A stretch of 64,000 nucleotides of DNA. Origin: Bugulina stolonifera. Lineage: Eukaryota; Bryozoa; Gymnolaemata; Cheilostomatida; Bugulidae. Location: assembly GCA_935421135.1 (NCBI GenBank), contig OW285191.1, positions 1,860,001-1,924,000 of the forward strand. Direction: 5' to 3'. The notes below the pieces were generated by a model. The model did not search any database and had not been told where the DNA came from. It saw only the letters and a program-made list of their open reading frames with translations. Below are positions 1-55,930 of this stretch, one piece after another. Made by a program: the position numbers and the translations under genes. Positions within the stretch are counted from its first letter, which is position 1; each line of letters opens with the position of its first letter.

Positions 1-3000
1 GTTCGTGTTTCGTATCGTTGCACCTTCTCACAACATTCCCTCATCTCCCACTCTTGGCCGAGCACCTTGGTCGTGATAAAGTCTCCCTTGTGCCTATCGC
101 AGAAGGGTCTGGGAAACCATCTACCATATTCTCTGTAGAACTCTTCTTTTTTATCTTTTCGGATGACCTCATCTATACTACGAGCACTCAGAGCCATGTA
201 AGCGCTATCCTTGTCCATTTCTACGTACTCAAAGTCCTCTCTGCTGACGAATCTGTGAAAATAAAACGAACGGGTTGTAGGGGGGGGGGGGGGTTGGGGT
301 TGACACCAAAGAATAAATAGAGAAGGATTTGATAAAATCTTTGTATAGTCTAGTTCTACTTACCTATCCATAAAGTCGTAGTAGAATTCTAGCATTCTCA
401 ACTTGGCTCTCTGGAGGATAACGAATCCTACGACAGATGGAACATCCATTCGAATCTAAAAGAAAGAAAGAGAGAGAGAGAGTTTACCCTACCACTCAGA
501 AAAAGTTTCGTCAAATCAAGAATCAAAATAAAAAGAAAGATTGTCAACACTTGCCTTTTTCTTGTGAAGCTCTATCTCAAAGTAGTTTTCATCAACTTCG
601 TTGAGACTAGAAAAGTGCCTACTCCTCACTTTGACAGCCGCCTCCTCTACTGTCTCCACATACTTGACAGTCTTATGTTTCTCTTTATTTGTTATAGTCT
701 TTCCGTAGGCTGAATTCCCAACGAGCTTGCTGGTGCTGGCCAAGAGGGCCAGGTCGGGGTTCACATCCCCACCTCTTCTTGCGTCTGAGACCGAAGAACC
801 AAAGTCTTTGTAGATGGCTCGTGGGATAAAGTGAACAAACTGATAGATCCTGGTAATTATCAAACCTTGATCTAGATACCATCTAGCCAGATCGGAGAGT
901 AGTGTGATTCGCTCGCCAAAAAGACTCCCTACGAGCATTCGCTGAGGTCTCTTCAAGAATCCGTTCTGTTCGGCAAAAGCGCGCATGTGTTCGCTAAGGT
1001 GTTCTCTTCCCACGTTTATATTCTTGAAAATAGGTGCCATCTCAGAGAACTTCGCTTTTAGCTCTTCGGGTACGGAAATGTCACACTCCACTAAACCATA
1101 GTACTCTCCACTACGAATGTTATTGATTATCTTATCGAGGTTGACGTAACCCCTCTCCGGATAGAGAGAAGAAAAGAAGATGGTGAGAAATGTCCTAACT
1201 TCTACATCCGAACGAACTCGCGCTTCCCACTCACACTGCCGAGTGGTGATGAGCTTATAGCCTAGAGCCTTGATGTAATCTTCTTTCCTTGCAGTGTCTA
1301 CCCGGAGCTCTTCATTCGTCATGTTTCTGACACCTTTTCCAATCCCTCCTAGCTCGCACTCGTGCCCATGCCAGTAGCAACCGTGGAATTGGTACACCGT
1401 CCGACTCTGTTCGCTATAACCATCCACTGGTAGGTTGTGACAGCCTATCCTCATTTCTCCTCCATTCTGTTGGTAAAGGATGACCTCTCCTCTCTTCCAC
1501 GATTGGAACTCTAACCAACCATGCGCCACTTTGCTGAACTTTTTAATAGGTTCTAGAGCAAAGCCTCGGCTCTCTAGCCTCCGCCTGGGATAACCCGTAG
1601 GCATATTCCCCATCATACAGTATAGGTAGAGGGCGTTGGCATCAACTCCCAGAATGGACCTACAGGGTTTTGCGGATGTGCCATACATCTTCTCTCGAAT
1701 AGAGGTCACTCCAACTTCATGATGTCTGTGAAAGATAATGCTCGGCCCTCCCACGAGGTTATCACGAAGAGTATGGTACAGACTTTTGCTCTCCTCATCG
1801 AACAGACATATGGGTTGCGAGTTGCAAAGTTCGTCTCGGAGAGACATTAACCTATGCAGCGGAAGAGCGGCTTGTGGAGGAGAGTAGCCATAAGGTCGGG
1901 CCTCCACCTCCATAAACAACCATCTGATAGCCAAGCCTGGAAGCGAGATTGCGGATTTCAACATGTCAATACCCTTTTGTCGATAGATAGAGCTCTGACG
2001 TGCAATGGCCTCGATGAATGGGGCCACATCGAGGTTGTTGTACCAGATGAGAAAATCCCTGAACGTTTCCATGTTCTCTCTTTCCCACACGACCTGACAG
2101 TGGTGATAATCTTGCTCACTCAATTCTTGCTGAGTCAGCGAGTTGAAAAAACTCTCTCGGGGAGGGAGTCCATAATAATCCAACCTTCTCAGGGAATCTA
2201 CCCAGTCGTAAGGAAAGAATCCCTTACTCTCTGACACACCAAATGCCTTCAAGTATTTGGAGTAGTTGAAGCCCGGTGCGATAAAGCTGCATATGTCAAG
2301 GAACCTAAAACGTCTACTCTCCACGCAGGACATACTGTTAACACGCTTAACGATGAAGACAAAATCTTCTCCCTCCTCCTCTTGTAGAGAGCGAAGCAAA
2401 GGTCCCTTTAGTATATTTAGGTCATACTTTTGTGAGTTGAAACCAACCACCGGAACGCTGGAGATGTGCTGTTCTAACTCTCTTTCTAATCCGGAGAGAC
2501 CGGACTTCACCCTGTAAGTCGAGACGTTAGAGAACTTTTCGTCAGCAAAGGCTTCTTCTCTATCCGCCCGATCCGCAAGGAAAGTAGAGAGTCGCTTGCG
2601 TACATCCCGGAATCTTTCTCCGAACAAATCTCCTGCCACGTCAGCAATCTTTGCTATGTATTGGACGAATTGACGAATGCACTTCGTTCCATCCTTGCTG
2701 TCGACACTCCTCACAAAACACTTGGCCTGCTCAAACCCCGGGACGTTAGAACATACAGATATGCTCAGTAACTCGTGTCTTGCACTAAAAGTCATTGTGG
2801 AGGTGTTAGTTTGTAGGTTGTCTTTTGGCATGAAGCATTCAATATCATAGGTGATATAGTAGGGGTAGTATAAGAGGTCGGGGTTCACCACCTCTATTCC
2901 CGCCACTCGCTTGAGTTTTGTGAATATGGTTGGCGGGGGTCCAAACGTTCCACCAGGGAAAACAAACACCGATGCTTCCTCTGGCGAGCACTTATGTCGC

Positions 3001-4354
3001 CGTAGGCTGGACAAACGTGTGAAAGCGCCATCGCACAACTTGCAGGTGAAACATCTGGCAAACGAATCAACATTCTTTATCCAGCTGAAGTGTTTTTCGT
3101 ACATGTTGACAAAGAGTTTACGGGCTTTGTTTCGTGCCCCAGATGACCAAACTATCGGAGCTACCCCCTCATCAGTTAGGCAGAAGACTATTATAGATAT
3201 GTCAAAATGATCTTCCAAGGCCAGCAGATCACTCGCGCCCACCCCGGGAAAGTCTGACAAAGTTGATGAGGGTGGGGAAGAAGATCTAGATTGTCTCATG
3301 TATTGTTTAAACAAGCGATGTGTTGTGGTCTGAGAGGGGCGATGACAGCAACATCCCTTCTTTGGGTCGCAGTTACAGTCATACATCATGGCCAAACATC
3401 TAAAGAAACACAATTTGTCTGGGTAGGGACGGGCACCTCCTCTGGTCCAAAAGTCTACATCTAGTGCTATCACGTGTCGGTTGTTAAGTATGTAGTCTGG
3501 GAGTTTGCTCACTACACCACCCACCTTGCCAATCTCTAGGAGTTTATAGATGTAGAATGTCAAATTTGCAATGTGACGTAAAACCCAAGCGGTGTTCGGT
3601 CACCTTTGTGCTGACCTCTCTCTCAAGTCGAGCTCCTGCACAGATTCGCAAAACTCTCTCATCTCATTCTCTGCTCTGATCAGTCTTGGCTTGGGGAAGA
3701 ACGCGGCATTGTTGCTTGATGAGTGAAAGTAGCGCAACTCTCCACTGGTCTTATGCTCGAGGATGACTCCAGCGCTACAGTTAATCTTCACAGTACAAGG
3801 TACTCTCTTCCACATCGCTCTCAATTTAGTCCACACCTCTTCATCTCCTTCATCTTCACATTCCCCTCTCCACACTCGAACGTTGAGAATGTCTTCTACA
3901 GGACGAGAGTGTATTGTGGACCTGATCGAACTCCAATAGCGGGCTAGTAGCACCCCCATCTCATCCCCCTCTTCAGCTGTTGGAGGTTTGGACCAGAAAA
4001 CATCATCAAACTTCTCTGCATCCCCCTCATCTTTTTCCGCCTTGGCCTCGCTATGAAATCGTCTCATGTGATGACCTAGCTTTCTCCTCCCATCAAAACA
4101 TCCGCCACAAACCGGGCACTTGTGTGGGTGAGCCTGCGCATGCATTCTCTTCGTGTGCCTGTCTAGAGAAAACGCTGTTTTGAGAACCAGACCGCATAGT
4201 TGACAGGTGTGCTCGGCCTGACGAGAGCTCTCCCCCCCTATAAAAATACAAAATAGTAGGGTGTAAGTTATTCTTTTACCTCATACTACTATTAGCAATC
4301 CACAATTGTTACCAACTACCTCATTTAGCACTAACCTTTTTTACTTGTTGACAT
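1..4354 (-). pseudogene. Zinc-finger/family-B DNA polymerase with Vsr-like domain, left copy (3' end off window)
   Basis: A virus- or transposon-type DNA polymerase B gene read leftward. Inferred exons: 4354-4336 (ATG, six codons), 4237-555, 455-364 and 252 to beyond base 1, all in one frame. The product starts with two C2H2 fingers (about 4190-4060). From base 3563 a second stretch carries CFFRCLAMMYD, then a Cys/His motif (CKLCDGAF), exonuclease motifs YDIEC (about residue 240 from 3563), VGFNSQKYDL (370) and YNNLDVAPF (505), palm motif A GVDANALYLY (635), a Vsr-endonuclease-like block YQFHGCYWHGH...CEW (710-780), and motif B KLVGNSAYG (940). Motif C is in exon 4 near base 215 but reads D-K-D-S; the right copy has D-T-D-S. 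Defects: an in-frame TGA at 3602-3600 where the right copy has AGA, and a GC instead of GT donor at 554-553. Domain calls rest on motif recognition; protein priming is likely for this polymerase type but not shown. Confidence 0.85.
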
Positions 4355-4645
4355 CTCTGATCAGGTGCTGACTAGTAGGTAAGTGTCTCTGTTTAGTCTC
4401 CCTATAAAAAATATATAGTAGTAGGGTGTAAGTTAATTTTTTTTGTTTTTGGCTCAATAGCGTTATATACAATAGACACTTCACAATTGCTGCCGATTAC
4501 CCTATTTAGCACTAACCTTATGTTGTACTTGTTGACATCTCTGATCAGGCGCTGACTAGTAGGTAGCTGTCTCTGTTTACTCTCACTCTGTTGACTAGAG
4601 GCTGATTGTTCATACTGCTAGAGTGAGAAACTCATACCTTAAATA
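4231..4645 (-). promoter_or_regulatory. Duplicated leader and promoter of the left PolB gene
   Basis: Two related ~170 bp segments (about 4245-4405 and 4410-4580) each contain an exon-like stretch around ATGTCAACAAGT, a GTTAGT donor and a pyrimidine/TATAG acceptor. The PolB-proximal copy supplies the start codon at 4354. A TATA-like TATTTAAG lies on the minus strand at 4645-4638, just outside the satellite. The promoter role is inferred from position. The same arrangement is present in the right copy. Confidence 0.55.
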
Positions 4646-4696
4646 GTAGTATTCAGTGGGCGGAGTCTAACCATTTCCCCACCCTTGGCAATACCA

Positions 4697-5460
4697 CCCC
4701 GATGTGAATCCGAAGCCTCCCGATGTGAATCCGAAGCCTCCCGATGCACTCCGATGTGAATCCGAAGCCTCCCGATGTGAATCCGAAGCCTCCCGATGCA
4801 TCCCGATGTGATTCCGAAGCCTCCCGATGCACCCCGATGTGAATCCGAAGCCTCCCGATGTGAATCCGAAGCCTCCCGATGCACCCCGATGTGAATCCGA
4901 AGCTTCCCGATGCATCCCGATGTGATTCCGAAGCTTCCCGATGCATCCCGATGTGATTCCAAAGCTTCCCGATGCATCCCGATGTGATTCCGAAGCTTCC
5001 CGATGCATCCCGATGTGAATCCGAAGCTTCCCGATGTGATTCCGAAGCCTCCCGATGCATCCCGATGCACCCCGATGTGAATTGACACATCGGGACACAT
5101 CGGGACACATCGGGATGCATCGGGAAGCTTCGGAATCACATCGGGATGCATCGGGAAGCTTCGGAATCACATCGGGATGCATCGGGAAGCTTCGGATTCA
5201 CATCGGGATGCATCGGGAAGCTTCGGAATCACATCGGGATGCATCGGGAAGCTTCGGATTCACATCGGGATGCATCGGGAGGCTTCGGATTCACATCGGG
5301 GTGCATCGGGAGGCTTCGGATTCACATCGGGATGCATCGGGAGGCTTCGGATTCACATCGGGATGCATCGGGAGGCTTCGGATTCACATCGGGAGGCTTC
5401 GGATTCACATCGGGGTGCATCGGGAGGCTTCGGATTCACATCGGGGTGCATCGGGTCACA
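4697..5460. repeat. Inverted satellite array between the divergent element genes, left copy
   Basis: About 770 bp of alternating 21-bp (CCCGATGTGAATCCGAAGCC plus one base) and 31-bp units built around CCCGATG. Left of about 5080 the units read CCCGATG; right of it they read CATCGGG, so the array is a long imperfect palindrome with its centre near 5080-5110. It sits exactly between the PolB gene leader and the promoter of the rightward gene. Long frames of MHREASESH-type repeats cross it on both strands but are artefacts of the unit. It could be a replication origin, a shared promoter/enhancer, or structural DNA; the sequence alone does not decide. Confidence 0.9.
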
Positions 5461-5506
5461 TTGGGATTGGATAAAAAAAAGGGAGGAGCCAAGAAATGAG
5501 CAGTTG

Positions 5507-5512
5507 TATAAA
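5507..5512 (+). promoter_or_regulatory. TATA box of the left SSB-like gene
   Basis: TATAAA lies 84 bases upstream of the ATG at 5596, directly after the inverted array, and is conserved in the right copy (27446-27441, minus). It is probably the core promoter; the transcription start is not proven. Confidence 0.6.
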
Positions 5513-5595
5513 GGGAGAGTGGGATCACAGTCTCAGCATTCAAAGTTCAGCACATCACAACTGTACAGCTACACTACTACAATAGTACATTATCA

Positions 5596-6913
5596 ATGGA
5601 TACTGACAACATAGTCCAAAACCAAGAAGAGTTATTTGCGGGCTTAACGGACTCACAAATGGATGGAATTATTGAAGAAGAAGAGTGCAGTCAGAAGAGG
5701 AAAGAAGAGGTGGATGCGTTAAAAGAGGCACGGAAGAAGGGGAAAATAATAGGAGTGGGGAGTCTTGCCCGAAAGGATCTTTCTAACATGGCGGACTCTC
5801 CATCCTCCCCGGAGCGGGCCTCAGATAGGGGCGAGACCACAACAACCAAGAAGAGGAAGAACCCAAAAGGAGATGAAATCTGTGCTAAGAAAAAGAAGAA
5901 ACCCCAGGTGATTGTAATATCAGATGATGATGATGATGATGGCCACGGAGCCGATACGGCTACGGAAGAAATGGATGGTGGTGAGACGACGAAGGGAAAA
6001 AAAGCTACCAAGTCCCCTTGCAAGGGGAAGAAAAAGAGCGGGGGACTAAGCCTGGAGAAAGCTCGTGCAGTGGCGGCAACCCTAATGTAAGTAGCCCTAT
6101 TCGTATATCTATAAATTACCGTACTATCTTTCTCCCGTTTAACCGCTTTGTCGGATCTATATACACCACTTTCGTTATTGTAGGAGCATGGGAGCGGAGA
6201 AGAGGAGCTCTCTGCAGACAACGGTGAAGCTGTCAGAGCTAGAGCCAGGAACTGTGCTAGAAGTGAGTGGAGGTTCGGTGGTTGAAACGGCATTCGGAAA
6301 AGCATTCTTAGCCAGGGCAAGCTATGTGGATGACAAGGGGATGAGACAGTGCATCAGCTTTCACACCAACATTCGTCACGCCATGCCCAAGCTAGCGGAT
6401 GTCAAAGAAGAGGAGCTAAAAGACCTTACCCTTCCACCTAGGATCATGGTGTACTTGGGACAGCAGGAGACCGCTAAAGGACAAAACACATTCAATCGTA
6501 TCGAGAGCGTGTGCTCCCTGCCAGGAGCAGCCATGAAAAAGCTGGCCGGTGACTTGAGAAAGAAGACCTTGGCCCAGTTGGAAGAATTTTTTCGAGTGCA
6601 AACGCTATCTTCATTCCCCGTTGGTTCTGTGCTGGTGATGACCGCGCTCCGACCCACATACGTCCCAAGATGCGGTGATGGTGATAATGCGAGCAACTCC
6701 ATTGCCACCTACGAGTGCCGGATTGGAAACGAAGAAAAAAAGGGAGAGGTCTTCCTTCCGGGATGTCTGGCAGTTTCGATGAAAGAGCTCCTCCCCTCCG
6801 TGATGGTGTACAAGGGACAGAAGACTTCCAAGAGCGGGAGGACATTCTACGATTGTGCCATTCTAGATTCCATCCTCGGCGAGCGTCTCCTCCCCGCCAC
6901 TGCACAGTTTTGA
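5596..6913 (+). CDS. Nuclear basic/acidic protein with duplicated OB-like domain, intact left copy
   Basis: Two exons, 5596-6086 and 6184-6913, joined across a 97 bp GTAAGT...TAG intron give a 406-residue open frame; the joined codon is AT|G. The N-terminal ~165 residues are low-complexity: lysine/arginine clusters (KKRKNPK, KKKKK), an IVISD motif followed by an aspartate run, and KGKKKSGG, suggesting a nuclear protein. The C-terminal ~240 residues hold two similar blocks, roughly residues 175-280 and 300-400, each beginning with a hydrophobic L-x-x-G-x-x-L-x-V stretch and ending in IMVYLGQQ...GQNTF or VMVYKGQKTSKSGRTF. This resembles a tandem OB-fold, so single-strand DNA binding alongside the divergent polymerase is plausible, but it is inference; I recognise no named family. 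No stop or frameshift is seen in this copy, whereas the right copy has one nonsense codon. Confidence 0.75.
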
Positions 6914-6939
6914 GGCAAAAACTTTTGTCATTCACACTC

Positions 6940-7335
6940 ATTCGTGTCTACTTATCAATTGATTTTATATTATTACTCTCAAACTCGTGTATCGTTAGCC
7001 TTACTCATATTTTTCATAGTCGTATATCGGTTTTTATCGATTGATTTTATATTATTACTCTCAAACGTATTGAAAATTAAAACAAACTCGTGTATCATTA
7101 CCCTTACTCATATTTTTCATAGTCGTATATCAAGTTTTTTATCGCTTGATTTTATATTATTACTCTCAAACGTATTGAAAATTAAAACAAACTCGCGTAT
7201 CATTACCCTTACTCATATTTTTTTCGTAGTCACATATCAAGTTTTTTATCGATTGATTTTATATTATTACTCTCAAACGCATTGAAAATTAAAACAAACT
7301 CGTGTATCATTACCCTGACTCATATTTTTCATAGT
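6940..7335 (+). repeat. AT-rich tandem repeat, left copy
   Basis: Three to four units of about 105 bp containing TATATTATTACTCTCAAACG, AAAATTAAAACAAACTCG and ACTCATATTTTTCATAGTCG, starting right after the stop of the SSB-like gene. Mirrored in the right copy. Non-coding; the short frames across it are periodic artefacts. Confidence 0.85.
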
Positions 7336-7403
7336 CGCATATCATCTATTCTAGAATACATCACACACCATTACTCTAACCCGTATTTTCCTTCGCTTCA
7401 CCC

Positions 7404-7912
7404 TACTCTAGCCGACGGTCCGCCCGCGAGGGCCGCGACGGGTCGTTGGGGCGGGAGGGTGGGGGAGGGGCGGGGGATGGGCGGGGGGAGGGCGGCGTGG
7501 GGCCACGGCTGGACTCGCAAACGAGAACCGCCGCGAGGCGGAGGGCGAGGCGGAGGGGAGGGGTGGGGAGGGGTGGGGAGGGGCGGGGACGGGTGGAGGG
7601 AGGACGGGTGGGGTTCGCGGGGCGCGCGCGTACGCGCGCCCCCTCGCCCGAGCCGTGGGACGGGGCGAGGGCGGGGCGCGGGGTTTGCTCTTTAGACTGG
7701 GTTCCGCGCAACAGCCGATGAGGTTTTTGAAACCCCACCCGCGATGGGGGGGAGTAGGTTCTAGGGCTTTGCACATAGAGTGAGGTTTAGGGGAAAGGAG
7801 GGGGCGAGAGGACGGGTGGGGTGGTCGTCCGCCCGGGGAGTTTTTGGATCTAGGGCTAATACGACGCGGAAATGGCCGGGTGTCTGTGTAGATCTGCACT
7901 GACTATACTACT
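7404..7912 (+). repeat. GC-rich, G-run-rich terminus of the PolB element, left copy
   Basis: An abrupt change to very G-rich sequence on the plus strand (GGGGAGGGGCGGGG-type runs, 7440-7700), then a moderately GC-rich tail to TGCAGATCT and the terminal TACTACTA. Homology to the right copy (25159 onward, inverted) stops at about 7912, marking this as the inner end of the element. Many G-runs could form quadruplexes. The apparent 60-160 codon frames here are composition artefacts. Confidence 0.8.
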
Positions 7913-7944
7913 AATATTTATTAAATGCAACTTTATTTGATTGT

Positions 7945-8092
7945 TACATTCATATTACTAATCCAACAGCTTTGTTTACATGTACATACTAGCATACAGC
8001 TTTTAGTAGCATGTGACATGTACATTATATTGTGTAAAGCAGTGTGTACTCTAACCAGTGAGAGGAATAACACATTCTCTCTCTGTAACGAT
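7945..8092 (+). repeat. Dispersed duplicate of 13889-14123
   Basis: Nearly identical to sequence 6 kb downstream, including CATATTACTAATCCAACAGC and the stretch through AACCAGTGAGAGGAATAACA. It lies about 30 bp outside the inner end of the left PolB element. Confidence 0.8.
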
Positions 8093-9204
8093 GTGCATTA
8101 TTTTACACTAAAGCTACATATACATATATCATGGGCTTATGTCTGTCTAGAGCAAGTACAACGTGTGTACATATAGTACTGTGTAAGTATAGAACTATAG
8201 ATAGTACTACTACATGTGTTTAGTTTAGACTAGTTAGTACAGTTGGAAATAATGTTCACCCCAAATGCCGAGAGAAGACAACTCTTAAGTAATGTGTATT
8301 GTAATGAACTATGGGGATATCTATACATAATGTGACATAATTAACTGCGTGCCGTACTGTCAGCACCTCACTCATACTAAGTCTATTTTGTATATATTTA
8401 TACAAGTCTAACTATGAAGGGCCAAGAGCTGATGCCCACACAGTAAACACATGCAGTAATAATTGTTTTTCCTACATCTCAATCCTCTTCTAAACCTAAC
8501 CGTGCAAGGGTCAACCTTCTATCTCTAGGTTATGGTCATACCTATCAACAATATATTGGGCTTGAGGACTTTTGAGTCACTTAAAGGGGAAAATCACAAA
8601 TTTTGAAGTGATTCTAAAGTGATAGTTCGAAATCTGGCGGTTCCAGACGTCATTTCCACAAATACCAAAATCCGCGTTTTTATCCAAAAAATCGGTTTAT
8701 CTGATTGGTCATGGGCGCATCCTTGTTGTTAGTCTAAGATCTGCAGACTTACACCGATATGCGAGGTGATTAATATATGCCCCGTTAAATCCACTATATT
8801 GCTATAGCCGTGCTGTTTCCGGTAAGTTTGCGCATTCACAGTTTACTGGTTTGCGACAGCCACTTGTGTTTTTTAGTAATTTCCAAAGTTTTCTGCTACT
8901 TACACTTGCTTGTTTTTTATACTGACTAATATAGCTCACGGCATATTCTACAATGCATATTTATCCGTCGGTAAGAAATCAAATCAAGTTATATTATAAT
9001 AAGTATTTGTTCATTCTTTTCTAATCCTACTAGATTATTTCCCACCGACTCTGACTGACAGTCACTGCAGTTTCACTGAACTATAAAAAACGCTAGTTTC
9101 AATTTGTTTAAAATAATTATTTATTATCAATTATGTTTGTTTTTATTTACTTATGCACGTAATTAATTAATAACTGTTCTACCATGGGTTGCATTGGTAG
9201 TTCA

Positions 9205-9345
9205 GCGGAGCTAGCAGTGACTCTCAGTCAGATTCGGAGCTAGTAGTGACTCTCAGTCAGATTCGGATCTTGCAGTGACTCTCAGTCAGATACGGAGCTA
9301 GCAGTGACTCTCAGTCAGATTCAGCTAGCAGTGACTCTCAGTAAG
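9205..9345 (+). repeat. Tandem repeat, about 30-bp unit, 5 copies
   Basis: Repeated AGTGACTCTCAGTCAGATTC separated by GGAGCTAG-type spacers. Non-coding. Confidence 0.85.
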
Positions 9346-15006: not shown

Positions 15007-18000
15007 TTACTCTGTTCTCAGATATAAATCCAGAGTAGAGTTGGACATGGTCAGTAGAGTAGGAATATCCCATTCACTAAGTAATTCCTCACAGTGTTCT
15101 AGAAAATTCATATCTATCACTTCATATTCTAGTAGTGATTGTAAGATAGTGATGTAACTTTGACTCTCTCTTACTTCCTGTGGCTACAATTATAACGAGT
15201 CCAGTTGTATATCATACGCTACACCTACTACTGTGACAGTTGTATATCAAACACTACACCTACTACAGTTGTATATCATACACTACATCTACTACAGTTG
15301 TACATCATACAATATACATCTACTACAGTTGTACATCATACACTACACCTACCACAGTTGTACATCATACAATATACATCTACTACAGTTGTACATCATA
15401 CACTACACCTACTACAGTTGTACATCATACACTACATCTACTAGCTGATAATGTAAAAGCATGTACATGTATTTAGGTGGAAACACATGAGAGCATTTTC
15501 AGGCCAAATTGACACCCAATAGCTCCCAAAAACATAGAGCCGTATCTGCAGAAGATATGGAGTAGACATGGAGTGCTAATTGGGTCAACTGGCAGACAAA
15601 CTCAATTCCTGAACATCAGCAAGCAGGTTGAGTCGCAGTGAATAGCAGCGAGATACGTGAGTATCTGATTGACACCCCACACCCGTCTGCATACAGCGTA
15701 TGTATCACAGCTACATGCCAAAAAATTCTCACCTAAATACTACCCTTATGTGTTTCTACCTAATTCAAGGATTTATTCTTCATTCTAATTTAGCAGCTGA
15801 TCGGCTGGAGGATTTATAGCTGAGGTAAAGGAATAAAATTATGCAAAAACTTGATAGCAAACATTTTCTTCAAACATTAGATATTTTACATATAACTACA
15901 TACATACATGTACATGTAATACATACATACATACATGTAACGAATTACAGGTATGTATGTAGTTAGCAAGGTCAAAGGTCAAACACTGACCTCTCACAAA
16001 CATACATTACATAGATATAAGACAGCCAAGAGATCACTTACCACAGCTCCATATGGAGTAGGGTGAGTTGGAATTGTCTTCACCACATCTAATACATCTG
16101 TTAGTTGCTGTGAATAAGTTGCAGCATATGTAGGTGTGGGAGGAGTTGTCCCACTTTTAACCATATACTGAACCAGATGATCAAATCTTTCCTGTACTTT
16201 CTCAGGTGTCACAGGTAACGTTGCATCTGCTTTTAGTCTCAGAGCCTACCAATGTTTACTAAACAGTTTAAATTACAGAATAATGAATGTATTAAGAGAA
16301 AGTTGCAAGAAGGCCTGCAGCAATGGAAATTATGCTTTGTGTTGAGAGTTATCCCCCCCCCCCCACAATATAATACAGAGAGGAGATAACTTCTTCCACA
16401 TTGTAATATATTGCATGTACATTGTATATTTACAAAAATATGAAGAGAATATTAGTTAGCCTGTGCATAGTAAAATAGGCAGATAAGGTACAAGCTTATA
16501 TACAATGTATGCATATCGTATAGTCATACCTGCTGTTTATGGTATTGCATTTTCTTGTATAGTATCGACCTTCTGGTGACCTCCAAATGCTCAGGGTGCC
16601 ACCCTCTCACTGAGTAACTCTTTCTCACTTTACTAAACTCAAGCTAAAAGATAATATTATATCTATATGACTACATGCAACTAACTGACAGATACCAGAC
16701 ATGAGCTACCAGATCGCAAGAATATAAACATAGAATTACCATGTGGAACCAATTCTAATATATTATATTGAAAAACATTGATATACAGAATCCAGCGAGC
16801 TAGGGATTGATCACATAACTGTCTATATTGATGTAGTTACCACAGTAGCTATGACAGAGTTATGTATTGTAAGTCATATACAGAGGTTAACTTACCAAAT
16901 ACTCATCTAGCATCTGGTTATACTGAGGTGCAGTCATAACTTTCCTACATCCCCCTAGTTCTCTTTCTAATACTAGTTTCTGCATCTCTGAACTCATGGT
17001 CTGGAAATGCTGTCCATGGTGACACCCTCTATACACCTCTCTGTGATGATGAGCTCCACCACCTATCAATTAGTATAACATTAATTAGACTATTCTATTA
17101 ACTGGTGCTACTGAGTGTATTATAGTAAGATGGTAGAGTATGGAGACATACGATGTATCTACAGCAGTATTTAACTTAAACCTACTAACTTGTAGAGACT
17201 CTATATCTACAGACTACTTACACATGACTCTATGAGCTGGTCTGTAGATTCCCTGCACTGGTGCAGATGTTGTGGGTTGGTACGTTAGTGGTGAGGATGG
17301 GTGGCAAGCCGTAGATGGATAAGGTGTTGGTACATGCATGGATGTAGTTGGTCTGTGCATAGATGTAGTTGGTCTGTGCACAGATGGAGTTGGTCTGTGC
17401 ATAGATGGAGTTGGTCTGTGCACAGATGGAGATGGTCTGTGCATATATGGAGTTGGTCTGTGCATAAATGGAGTTGGTCTGTGCATAGATGAAGATGTTT
17501 CATTAGTCTGTTCACACTTAAGGGGAACTTGGCCGCCATGACTGACTTGCACAGGGAGTTGAGTTTGTGGTCGAGTAGGCAAAGGTTCAGACTTGAGGTA
17601 TCCTGGAGAGACAGTTGGTTCACCCTTGAGAGTAAGTGGTTCAGCTTTGCATTTAGCTTTCACAGGTTCTACCTCATCTGTAATCATAGAACTCAAGCTA
17701 GTTAGTTAGTTAGTCAGTTAGTTAGTTAGTTAGTGTATTCCTGTCTCCAACGTATGTCTGAGGAATATTTTGTTTGTTAGAGCAATAAAAATGAAGTGAA
17801 TAAATAAATACAAGAATTTAGTTGCTTGTCAGTTACTCTGGTTAAAAAATTAACTGCTAACTTTAAATACAGAGTTTAGGAATTTAATGCACAGATTACT
17901 AAAACAGTACTTTCTTAGATCAATGCGGCACTTCAGCTGACGATATCTACCAGAAGGCAGTTTATCCAGTGCAAACAGGGGTGTGCGGTCAGTAGCGTAC

Positions 18001-23201: not shown

Positions 23202-23311
23202 AGAAAATGGCCAAACCCCCAACATTCAGGTGGCCATAATAAGAGGGGTGCCCTCGTGTGCAGCTCGCTCAGAGCATGTGTACTGCTCACCAGTGAAGCT
23301 TCCTTTTTTCG

Positions 23312-25158: not shown

Positions 25159-25682
25159 TGCTAGTAGTATAGTCAGTGCAGATCTGCACAGACACCCGGT
25201 CATTTCCGCGTCTTATTAGCCCTAGATCCAAAAACTCCCCGGGCGGACGACCACCCCACCCGTCCTCTCGCCCCCTCCCTTTCCCTAAACCTCACTCTAT
25301 GTGCAAAGCCCTAGAACCTACCCCCCGATCGCGGGTGGGGTTTCAAAAACCTCATCGGCTGTTCCGTAGAACCCAGTCTAAAGAGCAAACTCCTCGCCCC
25401 GTCCCCGTCCCGTCCCACGACTCGGGCGAGGGGGCGCGCATACGCGCGCGCCCCCCACCCCGCGAACATTACCCGTCCTCCCTCCACCCGTCCCCGCCCC
25501 TCCCCACCCCTCCTCTCCGCCTCGCCCTCCGCCTCGCGGCGGTTCTCGTTTGCGAGTCCAGCCGTGGCCCCACGCCGCCCTCCCCCGCCCATCCCCCGCC
25601 CCTCCCCCGCCCCTCCCCCGCCCTCCTGCCCCAACGACCCGTCGCGGCCCTTGCGGGCGGACCGTCGGCTGGAGTAGGGTGA
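25159..25682 (-). repeat. GC-rich terminus of the PolB element, right copy
   Basis: Inverted counterpart of 7404-7912: begins TAGTAGTATAGTCAGTGCAG, then GC-rich with C-runs on the plus strand. Small indels distinguish it from the left copy. The frames crossing it are not genes. Confidence 0.8.
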
Positions 25683-25734
25683 AGCGAAGGAAAATACGGG
25701 TTAGAGTAATGGTGTGTGATGTATTCTAGAATAG

Positions 25735-26030
25735 ATGATATACGACCATGAAAAATATGAGTTTGTTTTAATTTTCAATACGTTTGAGAGTAATAATATA
25801 AAATTAAGTGATAAAAAACTTGATACACGACTATGAAAAATATGAGTAAGGGTAATGATACACGAGTTTGTTTTAATTTTCAATACGTTTGAGAGTAATA
25901 ATATAAAATCAATCGATAAAAACCGATATACGACTATGAAGAATATGAGTAAGGCTAACGATACACGAGTTTGAGAGTAATAATATAAAATCAATTGATA
26001 AGTAGACACGAATGAGTGTGAATGACAAAA
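25735..26030 (-). repeat. AT-rich tandem repeat, right copy
   Basis: Inverted counterpart of 6940-7335 with one fewer unit of the ~105 bp repeat, so copy number differs between the arms. Confidence 0.85.
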
Positions 26031-26039
26031 GTTTTTGCC

Positions 26040-27357
26040 TCAAAACTGTGCAGTGGCGGGGAGGAGACGCTCGCCGAGGATGGAGTCTAGAATGGCACAA
26101 TCGTAGAATGTTCTCCCGCTCTTGGAAGTCTTCTGTCCCTTGTACACCATCACGGAGGGGAGGAGCTCTTTCATCGAAACTGCCAGACGTCCCGGAAGGA
26201 AGACCTCTCCCTTTTTTTCTTCGTTTCCAATCCGACACTCGTAGGTGGCAATGGAGTTGCTCGCATTATCACCATCACCGCATCTTGGGACGTATGTGGG
26301 TCGGAGCGCGGTCACCACCAGCACAGAACCAACAGGGAATGAAGATAGCGTTTGCACTCAAAAAAATTCTTCCAACTGGGCCAAGGTCTTCTTTCTCAAG
26401 TCACCGGCCAGCTTTTTCATGGCTGCTCCTGGCAGGGAGCACACGCTCTCGATACGATTGAATGTGTTTTGTCCTTTAGCGGTCTCCTGCTGTCCCAAGT
26501 ACACCATGATCCTAGGTGGAAGGGTAAGGTCCTTTAGCTCCTCTTCTTTGACATCCGCTAGCTTGGGCATGGCGTGACGAATGTTGGTGTGAAAGCTGAT
26601 GCAATGTCTCATCCCCTTGTCATCCACATAGCTTGCCCTGGCTAAGAATGCTTTTCCGAATGCCGTTTCAACCACCGAACCTCCACTCACTTCTAGCACA
26701 GTTCCTGGCTCTAGCTCTGACAGCTTCACCGTTGTCTGCAGAGAGCTCCTCTTCTCCGCTCCCATGCTCCTACAATAACGAAAGTGGTGTATATAGATCC
26801 GACAAAGTGGTTAAACGGGAGAAAGATAGTACGGTAATTTATAGATATACGAATAGGGCTACTTACATTAGGGTTGCCGCCACTGCACGAGCTTTCTCCA
26901 GGCTTAGTCCCCCGCTCTTTTTCTTCCCCTTGCAAGGGGACTTGGTAGCTTTTTTTCCCTTCGTCGTCTCACCACCATCCATTTCTTCCGTAGCCGTATC
27001 GGCTCCGTGGCCATCATCATCATCATCATCTGATATTACAATCACCTGGGGTTTCTTCTTTTTCTTAGCACAGATTTCATCTCCTTTTGGGTTCTTCCTC
27101 TTCTTGGTTGTTGTGGTCTCGCCCCTATCCGAGGCCCGCTCCGGGGAGGACGGAGAGTCCGCCATGTTAGAAAGATCCTTTCGGGCAAGACTCCCCACTC
27201 CTATTATTTTCCCCTTCTTCCGTGCCTCTTTTAATGCATCCACCTCTTCTTTCCTCTTCTGACTACACTCTTCTTCTTCAATAATTCCATCCATTTGTGA
27301 GTCCGTTAAGCCCGCAAATAACTCTTCTTGGTTTTGGACTATGTTGTCAGTATCCAT
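26040..27357 (-). pseudogene. SSB-like nuclear protein gene, right copy with nonsense codon
   Basis: Same two exons as the left copy: 27357-26867 and 26769-26040, with GTAAGT donor and TAG acceptor. Exon 1 is open and matches the left copy closely, keeping the basic clusters and aspartate run. Exon 2 has TGA at 26360-26358 between the two OB-like blocks, where the left copy has CGA (the residue after EEFF); downstream coding is otherwise open. A TATAAA box at 27446-27441 precedes it. A product truncated after the first OB-like block is conceivable. Confidence 0.8.
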
Positions 27358-27489
27358 TGATAATGTACTATTGTAGTAGTGTAGCTGTACAGTAGTGATG
27401 TGCTGAACTTTGAATGCTGAGACTGTGATCCCACTCTCCCTTTATACAACTGCTCATTTCTTGACTCCTCCCTTTTTTTTATCCAATCC

Positions 27490-28265
27490 CAATGTGACCC
27501 GATGCACCCCGATGTGAATCCGAAGCCTCCCGATGCACCCCGATGTGAATCCGAAGCCTCCCGATGTGAATCCGAAGCCTCCCGATGCATCCCGATGTGA
27601 ATCCGAAGCCTCCCGATGCATCCCGATGTGAATCCGAAGCCTCCCGATGCACCCCGATGTGAATCCGAAGCCTCCCGATGCATCCCGATGTGAATCCGAA
27701 GCTTCCCGATGCATCCCGATGTGATTCCGAAGCTTCCCGATGCATCCCGATGCATCCCGATGTGATTCCGAAGCTTCCCGATGCATCCCGATGTGAATCC
27801 GAAGCTTCCCGATGCATCCCGATGCATCCCGATGTGATTCCGAAGCTTCCTGATGCATCCCGATGTGAATCCGAAGCTTCCCGATGCATCCCGATGTGAT
27901 TCCGAAGCCTCCCGATGCATCCCGATGCACCCCGATGTGAATTGACACATCGGGACACATCGGGAAGCTTCGGGATGCATCGGGAAACTTCGGAATCACA
28001 TCGGGATGCATCGGGAAGCTTCGGAATCACATCGGGATGCATCGGGAAGCTTCGGATTCACATCGGGATGCATCGGGAAGCTTCGGAATCACATCGGGAT
28101 GCATCGGGAAGCTTCGGATTCACATCGGGATGCATCGGGAAGCTTCGGAATCACATCGGGATGCATCGGGAGGCTTCGGGTTCACATCGGGAGGCTTCGG
28201 ATTCACATCGGGGTGCATCGGGAGGCTTCGGATTCACATCGGGAGGCTTCGGATTCACATCGGGG
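27490..28265. repeat. Inverted satellite array, right copy
   Basis: Counterpart of 4697-5460 built from the same 21- and 31-bp CCCGATG units, with the orientation switch near 27945 (GATGTGAATTGACACATCGG is common to both centres). The order and number of units differ between copies, but the switch and the flanking promoters are kept. Confidence 0.9.
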
Positions 28266-28316
28266 TGGTATTGCCAAGGGTGGGGAAATGGTTAGACTCC
28301 GCCCACTGAATACTAC

Positions 28317-28737
28317 TATTTAAGGTATGAGTTTCTCACTCTAGCAGTATGAACAATCAGCCTCTAGTCAACAGAGTGAGAGTAAACAGAGACAGCTACC
28401 TACTAGTCAGTGCCTGATCAGAGATGTCAACAAGTAGAACATAAGGTTAGTGTTAAATGGAGTAATTGGCAGCAATTGTGAAGTGTTTATTGTATAAAAT
28501 GTTATCAAGCTAAAAAATAACTCACACCCTACTACTATATATTTTTATAGGGAGACTAAACAGAGACACCTACCTTCTAGCCAGCACATGATCAGCAGAG
28601 ATGTCAACAAGTGAAAAAGAAGGTTAGTGCTAAATGAGGTATTTGGTAGCAATTGTGGATTGTTTATTGTTTATGTAGTGTGAAGTAAAAGAATAATAAC
28701 TTACACCCTACCATTTTGTATTTTTTTTTTTTTATAG
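28317..28737 (+). promoter_or_regulatory. Promoter and duplicated leader of the right PolB gene
   Basis: TATTTAAG at 28317-28324 is followed by two similar segments (about 28370-28550 and 28550-28740), each with CAGAGATGTCAACAAGT, a GTTAGT donor and a TATAG acceptor. In the first copy the ATG frame hits TAG after five codons. The second copy has the ATG (28601) that splices in frame to the fingers. Confidence 0.55.
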
Positions 28738-31700
28738 GGGGAGAAACCTCTCGTCAGGTCGAGCACACCTGTCAACTATGCGGTCTGGTTCTCAGAACAG
28801 CGTTTTCTCTAGACAGGCACACGAAGAGAATGCATGCACAGGCTCACCCGCACAAGTGCCCCGTTTGTGGCGGATGTTTTGATGGGAGGAGAAAGCTAGG
28901 TCATCACATGAGGCGATTTCATAGCGAGGGTAAGGTGGAAAAAGATGAGGGAGGTGCAGAGAAGTTTGATGATGTTTTCTGGTCTAAACCGCCAACAGCT
29001 GAAGAGGGGGATGAGATGGGGGTGCTACTAGCCCGCTATTGGAGCTCCATCAGGTCCGCAATACACTCTCGTCCCGTGGAAGATATTCTCAACGTTCGAG
29101 TGTGGAGAGGGGAAGGTGAAGACGAAGGAGATGAAGAGGTGTGGACTAAGTTGAGAGCAATGTGGAAGAGAGTGCCTTGTACTGTGAAGATTAACTGTAG
29201 CGCTGGAGTCATCCTCGAGCATAAGACCAGTGGAGAGTTGCGCTACTTTCACTCATCGAGCAACAATGCCGCATTTTTCCCCAAACCAAGACTGATCAGA
29301 ACAGAGAATGAGATGAGAGAGTTTTGCGAATCTGTGCAGGAGCTCGACTTGAGAGAGAGGTCAGCACAAAGGAGACCGAATACCGCTTGGGCTTTACGTC
29401 ACATTGCGAGTCTGACATTCTACATCTATAAACTCCTAGAGATTGGCAAGGTGGGTGGTGTAGTGAGCAAACTCCCAGACTACATACTTAACAACCGACA
29501 CGTGATAGCACTAGACGTAGACTTTTGGGCTAGAGGAGGTGCGCGTCCCTACTCAGACAACTTGTGTTTCTTTAGATGCTTGGCCATGATGTATGACTGT
29601 AACTGCGACCAAAAAAGGGATGTCGTTGCCGTCGCCCCTCTCGCACCACAACACATCGCTTGTTTAAAATATACATGAGACAAACTAAATCTTCTTCCCC
29701 ACCCTCATCAACTTTGTCAGACTTTCCCGGGGTGGGCGCGAGTGATCTACTGGCCTTGGAAGATCATTTTGACGTATCTATAATAGTCTTCTGTCTAACT
29801 GATGAGGAGGTAGCTCCGATAGTTTGGTCATCCGGGGCACGAAACAAAGCCCATAAACTCTTCGTCAACATGTACGAAAAACACTTCAGCTGGATAAAGA
29901 ATGTTGATTCGTTTGCCAGATGTTTCACCTGCAAGCTGTGCGATAGCGCGTTTACACGCTTGTCCAGCCTACGATGACACAAGTGCTCGCCAGAAGAGGC
30001 ATCGGTGTTCGTTTTCCCTGGTGGAACGTTTGGACCCCCGCCAACCATATTCACAAAACTCAAGCGAGTGGCGGGAATAGAGGTGGTGAACCCCGACCTC
30101 TTATACTACCCCTACTATATCACCTATGATATCGAATGCTTCATGCCAAAAGACAACCTACCAACTAACACCACCACGATGACTTTTAGTGCAAGACACG
30201 AGCTACTGAGCATATCCGCGTGTTCTAACGTCCCGGGGTTTGAGCGGGCCAAGTGTTTTGTGAGGAGCGTCGACAGCAAGGATGGGACGAAGTGCATTCG
30301 TCAATTCGTCCAATACATAGCAAAGATTGCTGACGTGGCAGGAGATTTGTTCGGAGAAAGATTCCAGGATGTACGCGAGCGACTCTCTACCTTCCTCGTG
30401 GATCGGGCGGATAGAGAAGAGGCCTTTGCTGACGACAAGTTCTCTAACGTCTCGACTTACAGGGTGAAGTCCGGTCTCTCCGGATTAGAAAGAGAATTAG
30501 AACAGCACATCTCCAGCGTTCCGGTGGTCGGCTTCAACTCGCAAAAGTATGACCTAAATATACTAAAGGGACCTTTACTTCGCTCTCTACAAGAGGAGGA
30601 GGGAGAAGATTTTGTTTTCATCGTTAAGCGTGTTAACAGTATGTCCTGCGTGGAGAGTAGACGTTTTAGATTCCTTGACATATGCAACTTTATCGCACCA
30701 GGCTTCAACTACTCCAAATACTTGAAGGCATTTGGCGTGTCAGAGAGTAAGGGATTCTTTCCTTACGACTGGGTAGATTCCCTGAGAAGGTTGGATCATC
30801 ACGGACTCCCTCCCCGAGAAAGTTTTTTCAACTCGCTGACTCAGCAAGAATTGAGCGAGCAAGATTATCACCACTGCCAGCTCGTGTGGGAAAGAGAGAA
30901 CATGGAAACGTTCAGGGATTTCCTCATCTGGTACAACAACCTCGATGTGGCCCCATTCATCGAGGCCATTGCACGTCAGAGCTCTATCTATCGACAAAAG
31001 GGTATTGATATGTTGAAATCCGCAATCTCGCTTCCAGGCTTGGCTATCAGATGGTTGTTTATGGAGGTGGAGGCCCGACCTTACGGCTACTCTCCTCCGC
31101 AAGCCGCTCTCCCGCTGCATAGGTTAATGTCTCTCCGAGGCGAACTTTGCAACTCACAACCCATATGTCTGTTCGATGAGGAGAGCAAAAGTCTGTACCA
31201 CACTCTCCGTGATAACCTCGTGGGAGGGCCAAGCATCATCTTTCACAGACATCATGAAGTTGGAGTGACCTCTATTCGAGAGAAGATTTATGGCACATCC
31301 GCAAAACCCTGTAGGTCCATTCTGGGAGTCGATGCCAACGCTCTCTACCTATACTGCATGATGGGGAATATGCCTACGGGTTATCCCAGGCGGAGGCTAG
31401 AGAGCCGAGGCTTTGCTCTGGAACCCGTTAGAAAGTTCAGCAAAGTGGCGCATGGTTGGTTAGAGTTCCAATCGTGGAAGAGAGGAGAGGTCATCCTTCA
31501 CCAACAGAATGGAGGAGAAATGAGGATAGGCTGTCACAACCTACCGGTGGATGGTTATAGCGAACAGAGTCGGACTGTGTACCAATTCCACGGTTGCTAC
31601 TGGCACGGACACGAGTGCGAGCTAGGAGGGAATGGAAAAGGTGTCAGAAACATGACGAATGAAGAGCTCCGGGTGGACACTGCAAGGAAAGAAGATTACA

Positions 31701-33254
31701 TCAAGGCTCTAGGCTATAAGCTCATCACCACTCGGGAGTGTGAGTGGGGAGCGCGAGTTCGTTCGGATGAAGAGGTTAGGACATTTCTCTCTATCCAGAG
31801 AGGGGTTGTGTCAACCTCGATAAAATAATCAACAACATTCGTAGTGGAGAGTACTACGGTTTAGTGGAGTGTGACATTTCCGTACCCGAAGAGCTAAAAG
31901 CGAAGTTCTCTGAGATGGCACCTATTTTCAAGAATATAAATGTGGGAAGAGAACACCTTAGCGAACACATGCGCGCTTTTGCCAAACAGAACGGATTCTT
32001 GAAGAGACCTCAGCGAATGCTCGTGGGGAGTCTTTTTGGCGAGCGAATCACACTACTCACCGATCTGGCTAGATGGTATCTAGATCAAGGTTTGATAATT
32101 ACCAGGGTCTATCAGTTCGTTCACTTTATCCCACGAGCCGTCTTCAAAGACTTTGGTTCTTCGGTCTCAGACGCAAGGAGAGGGGGAGATCTGGACCCCG
32201 ATCTGGCCCTCTTGGCCAGCACCAGCAAGCTCGTTGGGAATTCAGCCTACGGAAAGACCATAACAAATAAAGAGAAACATAAGACCGTCAAGTATGTAGA
32301 GACGGTAGAGGGGGCGGCCGTCAAAGTGAGGAGTAGGCACTTTTCTAGTCTCAACGAAGTCGATGAAAACTACTTTGAGATAGAGCTTCACAAGAAAAAG
32401 GTAAGTGTTGACAATCTTTCTTACTTTGACTCTTGATTTGACAAAACTTTTTCCGAGTGGAAGGGTGAACTTTCTCTCTCTCTCTCTCTTTCTTTTAGAT
32501 TCGAATGGATGTTCCATCCGTCGTAGGATTCGTCATCCTCCAGAGAGCCAAGTTGAGGATGCTAGAGTTCTACTACGACTTTATGGATAGGTGAGTAGAA
32601 CTAGGCTATACAAAGATTTTATCAAATCCTTTTCTATTTATTCTTCGGTGTCAGCAACCTCTAACCCGCCCGATTTATTTTCACAGATTCGTCAGCAGAG
32701 AGGACTTTGAGTACGTAGAAATGGATACGGATAGTGCTTACATGGCCCTGAGTGCTCGCAGTATAGATGAGGTCATCCGAAAAGATAAAAAAGAAGAGTT
32801 CTACAGAGAGTATGGTAAATGGTTTCCCAGACCCTTCTGCGATAGCCACAAGGGAGACTTTATCACAACCAAGGTGCTCGGGCAAGAGTGGGAGATGAGG
32901 GAATGTTGTGAGAAGGTGCAGCGATACGAAACACAAACCCCTGGTCTGTTTAAGGAGGAGTTTCGGGGGGAGGGGGTCATCGCGCTCAACTCAAAAACTT
33001 ACTTTTGTTGGTCTGCTGACGGCAATAGCAAGTATAGCAGCAAAGGACTAAATAAAAGAGGAAACACCCTAACCAAAGAGAAGTTCCTCTCCGTGCTCAA
33101 AACAGGGGAGTCGGTGAGAGGAGACAATCGGGGTTTTATCAGAAGAGGAAATCAAACGTATAGCTATACCCAGCTAAAGACCGGACTCACCTACTTCTAC
33201 GGTAAGCGGAAGGTTGCGGAAGACGGGGTGAGTACGAGTCCTATAGAATGTTAG
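28601..33254 (+). pseudogene. Zinc-finger/family-B DNA polymerase with Vsr-like domain, right copy
   Basis: Exons 28601-28622, 28738-32400, 32499-32590 and 32687-33254, all with GT-AG introns; the intact design would be about 1,440 residues. It runs without a stop from two C2H2 fingers (CQLCGLVLRTAF, CPVCGGCFDGRR) into the polymerase N-terminus, showing that fingers and polymerase are one protein. Exonuclease, motif A, Vsr-like (YQFHGCYWHGH) and motif B regions match the left copy. Motif C, M-D-T-D-S, begins exon 4 near 32721, and the C-terminus is complete. Disruptions relative to the left copy: a 1-base deletion near 29609-29617, CGA to TGA at 29975-29977, and a ~19-base deletion near 31785 between short repeats. 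So this copy is inactive despite correct motif C and splice sites. The three lesions were found by comparing the two arms. Confidence 0.85.
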
Positions 33255-33299
33255 TACTGATTTCTCGGAGATGAGACTACTTCATTCGATAAATCGGAG

Positions 33300-33480
33300 A
33301 GTAAACGAACAGTGCATCATAACCCTTGTATATATATATATATATATATATATACATACAACTACTTGATTATGGGGCTTTTATGAATTCCTGAGTTAAG
33401 TGGTATCGTATATTCCTAACCTGTGGGTTCATTATATATTATATATATTATATATAATAAGCCCCATTACTTGTGAAATC
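33300..33480 (+). repeat. Outer end of the right PolB element or adjoining repeat
   Basis: CAGTGCATCATAACCCTTGT followed by a (TA)n run and ATTATGGGGCTTTTATGAAT. The same sequence occurs inverted at 55484-55545, and the ATTATGGGGCTTT core recurs in the 81-bp satellite at 45-46 kb. It may be the terminal segment of the PolB element on its polymerase side. Confidence 0.5.
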
Positions 33481-55912: not shown

Positions 55913-55930
55913 AACCCTGAAGAACAGTGT

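What the first reader, a model, noticed from the sequence alone, without database searches (positions are those of the whole stretch)
1..33300. Compact PolB + SSB-like element with a reversing satellite between its two genes
Seen: two inverted copies with the same layout (G-rich terminus, AT tandem repeat, two-exon OB-like gene, orientation-switching array, divergent zinc-finger/PolB/Vsr-like gene). Known: family-B polymerases of this type occur in Polintons, bidnaviruses and related elements, usually with integrase or capsid genes. No integrase, capsid, protease or packaging ATPase gene is visible in either copy. Inference: a minimal self-replicating element with its own polymerase and ssDNA-binding protein, mobilised in an unknown way.
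Basis: partly seen in the sequence, partly recalled or inferred. Interest (0 to 1): 0.9.

Follow-up and report, generated by a model that had tools for sequence, protein, structure and literature searches.

The report
Two-gene mini-Polinton with flipping hairpin
Two copies of a compact mobile-DNA element in an unidentified, probably animal, genome carry only a Polinton-type DNA polymerase and a single-strand-binding-like protein, on either side of a long DNA palindrome whose centre lies in opposite directions in the two copies, with no recognisable gene for jumping or for making virus particles.

Summary
Two inverted copies (1..7913, cut by the window edge; 25162..~33330) share one layout and one exact outer end on the OB-gene side. 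The polymerase is a Polinton/Maverick protein-primed type: C2H2 fingers, OTU-like residues, exonuclease, palm, and a Vsr-endonuclease-like insert, the published mark of group I Mavericks; so the polymerase itself is known. The second gene encodes two tandem OB-like folds resembling RPA/POT1-type binders; one homolog was found. None of 41 non-gene frames (60 aa or more) in copy 2 shows an integrase, capsid, protease or ATPase domain, and its two ends are not inverted repeats. Both genes were under purifying selection between the copies (PolB dN/dS 0.14; OB 9 synonymous, 3 nonsynonymous), although three of four gene copies are now broken. The array is a ~370-bp-armed palindrome whose central ~100 bp are inverted between the copies; identity jumps beside it (95% to 99%). 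Best reading: a capsid-less, integrase-less lineage that kept a Polinton replication module; how it integrates is unknown. Linkage of the genes elsewhere and target duplications stay untested, because the genome search did not complete; the PolB-side end is only approximate.

The parts
1..4145 (-). PolB gene of copy 1 (C-terminal end cut by the window start): open 957-aa frame 516-3389 with C2H2 finger, OTU-like His, exonuclease, palm motif A, Vsr-like insert and motif B; N-terminal frame 3600-4145 with C2H2 finger and the region where a terminal protein would lie. One premature stop separates the two frames.
1110..1532 (-). Vsr-like endonuclease insert inside the PolB palm, between motifs A and B (copy 1)
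   Evidence: profile of 3 sequences hits only 3 Vsr endonuclease chains in the PDB at E up to 0.1 (1vsr, 1odg, 1cw0; E about 2e-5); Foldseek 1vsr E 0.014; PHROG endonuclease E 1.4e-5
4690..5470 (.). orientation-switching satellite of copy 1: 24 forward then 25 reverse motifs, switch near 5089; hairpin with ~370-bp arms
5030..5129 (.). centre of the copy 1 array, inverted relative to the genes when compared with copy 2
   Evidence: six consecutive 50-bp windows match copy 2 better in the inverted sense by 5-14 bases, up to 50/50 against 36/50; 80-bp window 5060-5139: 76 against 61. The true edges cannot be fixed because the arms match both ways
5596..6086 (+). OB gene exon 1 of copy 1 (charged, low complexity)
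   Evidence: GT donor at 6087
6184..6913 (+). OB gene exon 2 of copy 1: two tandem OB-like folds
6980..7344 (.). AT-rich 105-bp tandem repeat, 3.5 copies
7430..7683 (+). G-rich, quadruplex-prone block; the G-rich strand runs 5' to 3' towards the element end
7886..7913 (+). OB-side terminus of copy 1: subterminal near-palindrome 7886-7899, 11-nt spacer, then CTA; last base shared with copy 2
25162..25189 (-). OB-side terminus of copy 2, same end base; perfect palindrome GTGCAGATCTGCAC at 25176-25189
25397..25650 (-). G-rich block of copy 2
26040..27357 (-). two-exon OB gene of copy 2; one premature stop in exon 2
27490..28265 (.). orientation-switching satellite of copy 2: 20 forward then 29 reverse motifs (oriented PolB to OB), switch near 27936
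28689..33254 (+). PolB gene of copy 2 from the start of the open frame with the finger to the stop codon, with predicted introns 32401-32498 and 32591-32686; DTDS motif C in the last exon; frame broken at more than one place (indels and an early stop)
33309..33330 (+). PolB-side end sequence of copy 2, shared with the short fragment; the exact end is not fixed because TA repeats and a repeated host motif follow
55507..55909 (.). short fragment or derivative: PolB-side end sequence, about 130 bp of other DNA, then the G-rich block; it stops inside a GC palindrome short of the full OB-side end

Best explanation
This is a compact two-gene element, about 8.2 kb long, derived from the group I Polinton (Maverick) lineage. 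It kept the replication module and lost the virion and integration modules. SHOWN: two copies with the same layout and the same OB-side end; a Polinton-type PolB with a Vsr-like insert; a second gene modelled as tandem OB-like folds; purifying selection on both genes; a palindromic array whose centre is inverted between the copies; no inverted repeat between the ends of copy 2. INFERRED: the PolB starts DNA synthesis by protein priming (its N-terminal region would supply the terminal protein and the OTU domain would release it), and the OB protein coats displaced single strands, as single-strand-binding proteins do in phi29, PRD1 and adenovirus replication (recalled). The array acts as a shared divergent promoter or origin that the PolB zinc fingers may bind, and it recombines with itself during replication, which flips its centre and lets the OB-gene segment be exchanged between sublineages. 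SPECULATIVE: entry into the chromosome uses an integrase or helper acting in trans, or joining of a linear or hairpin-ended replication product, possibly assisted by the Vsr-like nuclease.
For: Layout and shared end. PolB identity: 203 homologs, 120 listed; conserved exonuclease, palm, OTU and Vsr residues in a 13-sequence alignment; Vsr-only PDB hits of the insert; phi29 polymerase as best PDB fold and bidnavirus-, adintovirus- and adenovirus-type PolBs among the best viral folds; Vsr insert as the published group I Maverick mark (one passage of PMC10328495). OB fold: RPA E 6e-6, POT1 5e-5, Teb1 4e-4. Purifying selection: PolB dS 0.14, dN/dS 0.14 over 946 codons; N-terminal frame 0.065 over 181; OB 9 synonymous, 3 nonsynonymous over 403. 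No other domain in 41 of 41 non-gene frames. Centre inversion and identity step, 197 of 4142 against 16 of 1720 differences.
Against: Only copy 2 has both ends, and its PolB-side end rests on a short shared signature (about 20 non-repetitive bases) with one fragment that itself lacks the full OB-side end. Three of the four gene copies carry a lesion, so no intact element was seen. Protein-primed replication normally needs matching ends (recalled), and none were found. Linkage of the genes outside this window was not shown: the only other OB homolog found lies on a 927-bp contig. OB Foldseek E-values are good but TM-scores are about 0.2, and no VIA Z exceeds 5.9. 6 of 49 homologs with motifs A and B lack even a loose Vsr motif. 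The far OB-side end (7345-7913) differs at 25 of 557 sites, as much as the PolB side, so the 99% stretch is a segment, not a whole half.
Confidence: 0.6

Rival explanations
1. Internal-deletion or truncation remains of a full-length Polinton or adintovirus-like provirus: the complete element carries integrase and capsid genes and moves these short copies in trans.
For: The PolB is of Polinton group I type. A short form exists (55507-55909). Lesions are present in both copies.
Against: Both copies have the same gene order and OB-side end, and both genes were under purifying selection after the copies' lineages split, which independent deletions would not give. The OB gene is not among the Polinton core genes named in the passage seen (PMC5718144), though that passage calls other genes optional. 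No terminal inverted repeats were found.
Confidence: 0.22
2. A new kind of single-strand (peel-and-paste or rolling-circle-like) element: no terminal inverted repeat, a subterminal hairpin 11 nt before a CTAR end, with the Vsr-like nuclease nicking and the PolB extending from the nick.
For: Identical OB-side end with palindrome, 11-nt spacer and CTA followed by A in copy 1 and G in copy 2; CTRR with a perfect stem of 5 or more at 9-13 nt occurs at 58 of about 128000 positions on both strands. The ends of copy 2 are not inverted repeats. A Vsr-like nuclease lies inside the polymerase and an SSB-like partner is encoded.
Against: The perfect stem is met in copy 2 only. The hairpin is ordinary in strength: 9% and 17% of 3000 random window 40-mers fold as well. 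No helicase or HUH nuclease family was hit in the frames scanned. The base after copy 2's end is C, where Helitrons (recalled) have T. The Vsr insert is shared with group I Mavericks in general (passage), so it is not specific to this element. The CTRR test was chosen after seeing the end.
Confidence: 0.1
3. Not mobile now: segmental or tandem-inverted duplication of a domesticated PolB-OB gene pair.
For: Purifying selection; two inverted copies within 33 kb.
Against: Homology stops at one exact base with unrelated flanks and 17 kb of unrelated DNA between the copies. A short form with the same G-rich block lies elsewhere. Three of the four gene copies are broken.
Confidence: 0.08

Closest known systems
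Polinton/Maverick, group I
   Same: Protein-primed-type family-B polymerase with a Vsr-like insert, OTU-like residues and N-terminal extension (one passage of PMC10328495; sections 7-9 of PMC11071308).
   Different: About 8.2 kb instead of 15-20 kb (passage of PMC5718144); no integrase, capsid, protease or ATPase gene found; no terminal inverted repeat found; an extra OB-fold gene and a palindromic array.
Adintoviruses
   Same: PolB with N-terminal OTU-like domain (passage of PMC11071296); adintovirus PolBs are ranks 3 and 7 in the viral fold search.
   Different: No hexon or integrase found; those two fold matches are at 14% and 11% identity.
Bidnaviruses
   Same: Family-B polymerase of the adintovirus kind (passage); densovirus/bidensovirus-named PolBs rank high in the fold search.
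   Different: No NS1-type helicase and no capsid found; here the genes are spliced and integrated.
Protein-primed replicons with own SSB (phage phi29, PRD1, Bam35; adenovirus)
   Different: Those have matching ends and a capsid (recalled); here the ends differ and no capsid gene is seen.
Helitrons
   Same: One end has a short hairpin 11 nt before CTAR, and no terminal inverted repeats were found.
   Different: No Rep/helicase found; target AT rule (recalled) met in one copy of two.

Membership tests
[quoted passage not shown]
   Pfam DNA_pol_B_2 above cut-off for the 957-aa frame (28.8 against 25.8 bits); conserved exonuclease and palm motifs; phi29 polymerase best PDB fold. Protein priming itself is inferred from the family
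Polinton/Maverick | group I mark: ~140-aa Vsr-like insert in PolB | tested here: met
   definition from one passage of PMC10328495
Polinton/Maverick | N-terminal terminal-protein and OTU domains | tested here: inconclusive
   OTU-type Cys and His residues align across the family; viral OTU structures appear only at E about 1 for a model that lacks the Cys half; Pfam gave no OTU hit in 6 homologs; the terminal-protein region was not modelled
Polinton/Maverick | retroviral-type integrase | tested here: not met
   0 of 41 non-gene frames of 60 aa or more in copy 2
Polinton/Maverick | major and minor capsid, protease, packaging ATPase | tested here: not met
   same 41 frames; about 2.3 kb of copy 2 lies outside the two genes, mostly repeats
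Polinton/Maverick | terminal inverted repeats | tested here: not met
   OB-side 900 bp against PolB-side 500 bp of copy 2: best match 26 bp, E 0.07; last 270 bp of the OB side against the whole window: only the two copies. The PolB-side end is approximate
Polinton/Maverick | 6-bp target duplication | tested here: inconclusive
   PolB-side end not fixed; copy 1 is cut by the window
Adintovirus | hexon plus integrase with chromodomain | tested here: not met
Bidnavirus | NS1-type helicase and parvovirus capsid | tested here: not met
Helitron | HUH Rep plus helicase | tested here: not met
Helitron | 3' hairpin plus CTRR, AT target (recalled) | tested here: inconclusive
   hairpin and CTAR at both copies' ends, perfect 5-bp stem in one, AT target in one
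ssDNA-binding OB protein | OB folds of the SSB/RPA kind | tested here: inconclusive

The most novel reading that the evidence does not exclude
A separate class of capsid-free, integrase-free DNA transposons of animals. Each would be a complete protein-primed replicon (polymerase with built-in primer protein, protease and Vsr nuclease, plus its own tandem-OB single-strand binder). It would move through single-stranded or hairpin-ended intermediates, with one hairpin end, a G-rich telomere-like tail whose G-strand runs outward, and a palindromic origin that flips at replication.
Probability: 0.17. Interest if true: 0.88.

Novelty: new variant of a known kind. Interest (0 to 1): 0.6.

Why it matters
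Polintons are argued to lie near the origin of many eukaryotic DNA viruses and linear plasmids. A lineage that kept only the replication module would be a present-day intermediate between virus and plasmid or transposon. It would also make a direct question testable: can a Polinton polymerase plus one OB protein sustain an element, and how do such elements enter chromosomes without an integrase? The flipping palindrome between two divergent genes is an easily assayed mark of replication or recombination.

Tried and rejected
The 31/21-bp array as a coding region: it is open in several frames on both strands because its period is not a multiple of three, and its Pfam hits stay below the curated cut-offs; rejected. 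The 204-aa antisense frame of the OB gene: open in both copies, no family; not pursued. The designed PPR protein hit of the OB profile (E 2e-6) has no stretch that passes by itself; rejected. OB protein as a known Pfam or PHROG family: nothing beyond E 0.09 (Pfam SH3_19) and 0.33 (PHROG). 'GCCCCATAATC' as part of the element end: with up to one mismatch it occurs 22 times in the window, largely in an unrelated 80-bp tandem array, so it is taken as host repeat; rejected. Relatives in IMG/VR: two PolB queries and one OB query gave none, and two terminus patterns gave none. GTDB scan: one contig at 22% identity, not useful. Tree of 100 of 120 listed homologs plus the window (the 20 shorter than 930 aa dropped): the window groups with sequences without names, nearest named ones Porites and Branchiostoma; support beside the window is weak (0.08 for its sister, 0.93 for a 7-sequence clade), and no adintovirus or Polinton reference could be included.

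Literature: ten paper searches, seen as capped listings (titles and abstract starts), for non-autonomous or mini-Polintons and for Polinton with Helitron terms, returned no paper. No listing entry that I saw reports a Polinton without integrase and capsid or with an OB gene; this is not proof that none is in print. Passages were seen of PMC11071296, PMC11071308 (and its sections 7-9), PMC12721341, PMC12220804, PMC10328495 and PMC5718144; no paper was read whole.

The inversion of the array is decided by its centre only. Of 73 windows of 50 bp, 17 match copy 2 better in the inverted sense, 24 in the collinear sense and 32 tie, because the arms are palindromic; the windows that differ by 4 or more are 6 at the centre (inverted) and 2 at the outer edges (collinear). 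The longest BLAST alignment over the array plus flanks is the collinear one. Fold families not listed by VIA for the OB model are not excluded.
Full report
WHAT IS THERE. The window is eukaryotic DNA (spliced genes, retroelements); the host was not identified, and animal origin is inferred from the named PolB relatives. It holds two inverted copies of one element. Long inverted arms pair stretches of 1-7752 with 25321-32938, mostly at 94-99% identity (77% in one G-rich arm pair). A pairwise alignment shows homology running to the same base on the OB side, 7913 in copy 1 and 25162 in copy 2, after which the flanks are unrelated. Copy 1 is cut by the window start. In order from the PolB side, each copy has a polymerase gene, an orientation-switching array, a divergent two-exon gene, an AT tandem repeat, a G-rich block and about 230 bp of further sequence to the end. 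A short piece at about 55507-55909 joins a PolB-side end sequence to the G-rich block, with about 130 bp of other DNA between.

POLYMERASE. The 957-aa frame of copy 1 (516-3389, minus strand) matches Pfam DNA_pol_B_2 above its cut-off and has 203 homologs (120 listed), the best at about 50% identity in sources without a name; named ones include Branchiostoma, Porites, Haliotis, Argopecten and Nucella. A 13-sequence alignment shows conserved OTU-type Cys and His residues, a C2H2 finger, exonuclease motifs, palm motif A and motif B; motif C (DTDS) lies in the last exon of copy 2. Among the 120 listed homologs, 49 hold both motif A and motif B as searched; the distance between these is 295-319 residues in all 49. 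Of the 49, 37 show the full zinc-site pattern of Vsr between them and 6 lack even a loose Vsr motif. The insert's profile (3 sequences) hits only Vsr endonucleases in the PDB (E about 2e-5). The model (pLDDT 72.6) matches densovirus/bidnavirus-type, adintovirus and adenovirus polymerases among viral models and phi29 polymerase, Vsr and, weakly, viral OTU proteases in the PDB. One passage of PMC10328495 states that group I Mavericks carry a ~140-aa Vsr-like insert while group II lack it, so this polymerase is of group I type. Sections of PMC11071308 describe Polinton PolBs as terminal protein, OTU protease, exonuclease and palm. The terminal-protein region of this family was not modelled here.

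SELECTION AND DECAY. Between the copies the PolB frame has dS 0.14 and dN/dS 0.14 over 946 codons (10 gap codons and 1 stop codon left out), its N-terminal frame 0.065 over 181, and the OB exons 9 synonymous and 3 nonsynonymous changes over 403 codons (2 stop codons left out). Both genes were therefore maintained as protein genes after the lineages split. The copies are now decaying: copy 1 PolB has one premature stop in the part seen, copy 2 PolB is broken by indels and an early stop, copy 2 OB has one premature stop, and copy 1 OB is open.

ARRAY. Each copy has a single switch of orientation (24 and 25 motifs; 20 and 29 motifs). The single strand of copy 1 folds to -484 kcal/mol against a mean of -161 for 20 shuffles. 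The centre of the array is inverted between the copies: six consecutive 50-bp windows over 5030-5129 match copy 2 at 46-50 of 50 in the inverted sense and 35-45 of 50 in the collinear sense, while the outermost windows at 4690 and 5410 are collinear (50 against 45 and 44); the arms between fit both ways, so the edges of the inversion are unknown. The PolB side differs at 197 of 4142 sites and the stretch 5260-6979 with the OB gene at 16 of 1720 (Fisher P 2e-15); the far OB-side end, 7345-7913, differs at 25 of 557. dS differs in the same way (0.14 against 0.03-0.04), so constraint alone does not explain the step. Recombination, gene conversion or template switching in or beside the palindrome would explain both facts; that the array serves as origin or divergent promoter is inference.

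NO OTHER GENES. Copy 2 with flanks holds 49 stop-to-stop frames of 60 aa or more. Eight belong to the two genes (for frames); the other 41 were all scanned against Pfam and none shows integrase, capsid, protease or ATPase; the few hits, all in the array, are below cut-off. The ends of copy 2 are not inverted repeats (best match 26 bp, E 0.07), and the OB-side end occurs nowhere else in the window. The PolB-side end is known only from about 20 non-repetitive bases shared with the short piece, and the sequence beyond it is a motif repeated in the host.

MECHANISM. The conservative reading is a protein-primed replicon: the PolB would supply primer protein, protease and synthesis, the OB protein single-strand binding. 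How copies enter the chromosome is open. A helper integrase in trans, end joining of linear products, and nicking by the Vsr-like domain are all possible. One lead points to single-strand mechanisms: the OB-side end has a short palindrome, 11 nt, then CTA plus A or G. CTRR with such a stem occurs at 58 of about 128000 positions, but the test was chosen after seeing the end, the hairpin is weak (9% and 17% of random 40-mers fold as well) and only one copy has the perfect stem, so it remains a lead. The G-rich block has its G-strand running outward in both copies and in the short piece, which, with POT1- and TEBP-like fold hits, suggests testing G-strand binding; it proves nothing yet.

LIMITS. 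The window's own genome could not be searched, so copy number, ends, target duplications and the linkage of the two genes elsewhere are not established.

Noticed in passing
38189-42064: A retroelement with zinc-knuckle gag, reverse transcriptase and an integrase-like region (read from the frames; Ty3/Gypsy by recall, no family scan), unrelated to the PolB element.
   Followed up: no
44945-46485: About 19 copies of an 80-bp tandem repeat holding the motif GCCCCATAATT, which also occurs singly near the PolB-side end of copy 2 and the short fragment: a repeated host motif.
   Followed up: partly
49273-52940: A second gag-like frame followed by an 838-aa frame with 96-bp internal repeats; nature unknown.
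   Followed up: no
55929-56359 and 57918-58358: Inverted pair of a 440-bp host repeat at 92.5% identity; it begins 20 bp after the short fragment's match ends.
   Followed up: partly
17335-17491: 21-bp repeat, 7.5 copies, open as a reading frame on the minus strand (17214-17687).
   Followed up: no
homologs P0001, P0002, P0007 and others: Several relatives of the PolB end close to the residue where this PolB has its 32401 intron (alignment), which suggests a shared intron position in related elements.
   Followed up: partly
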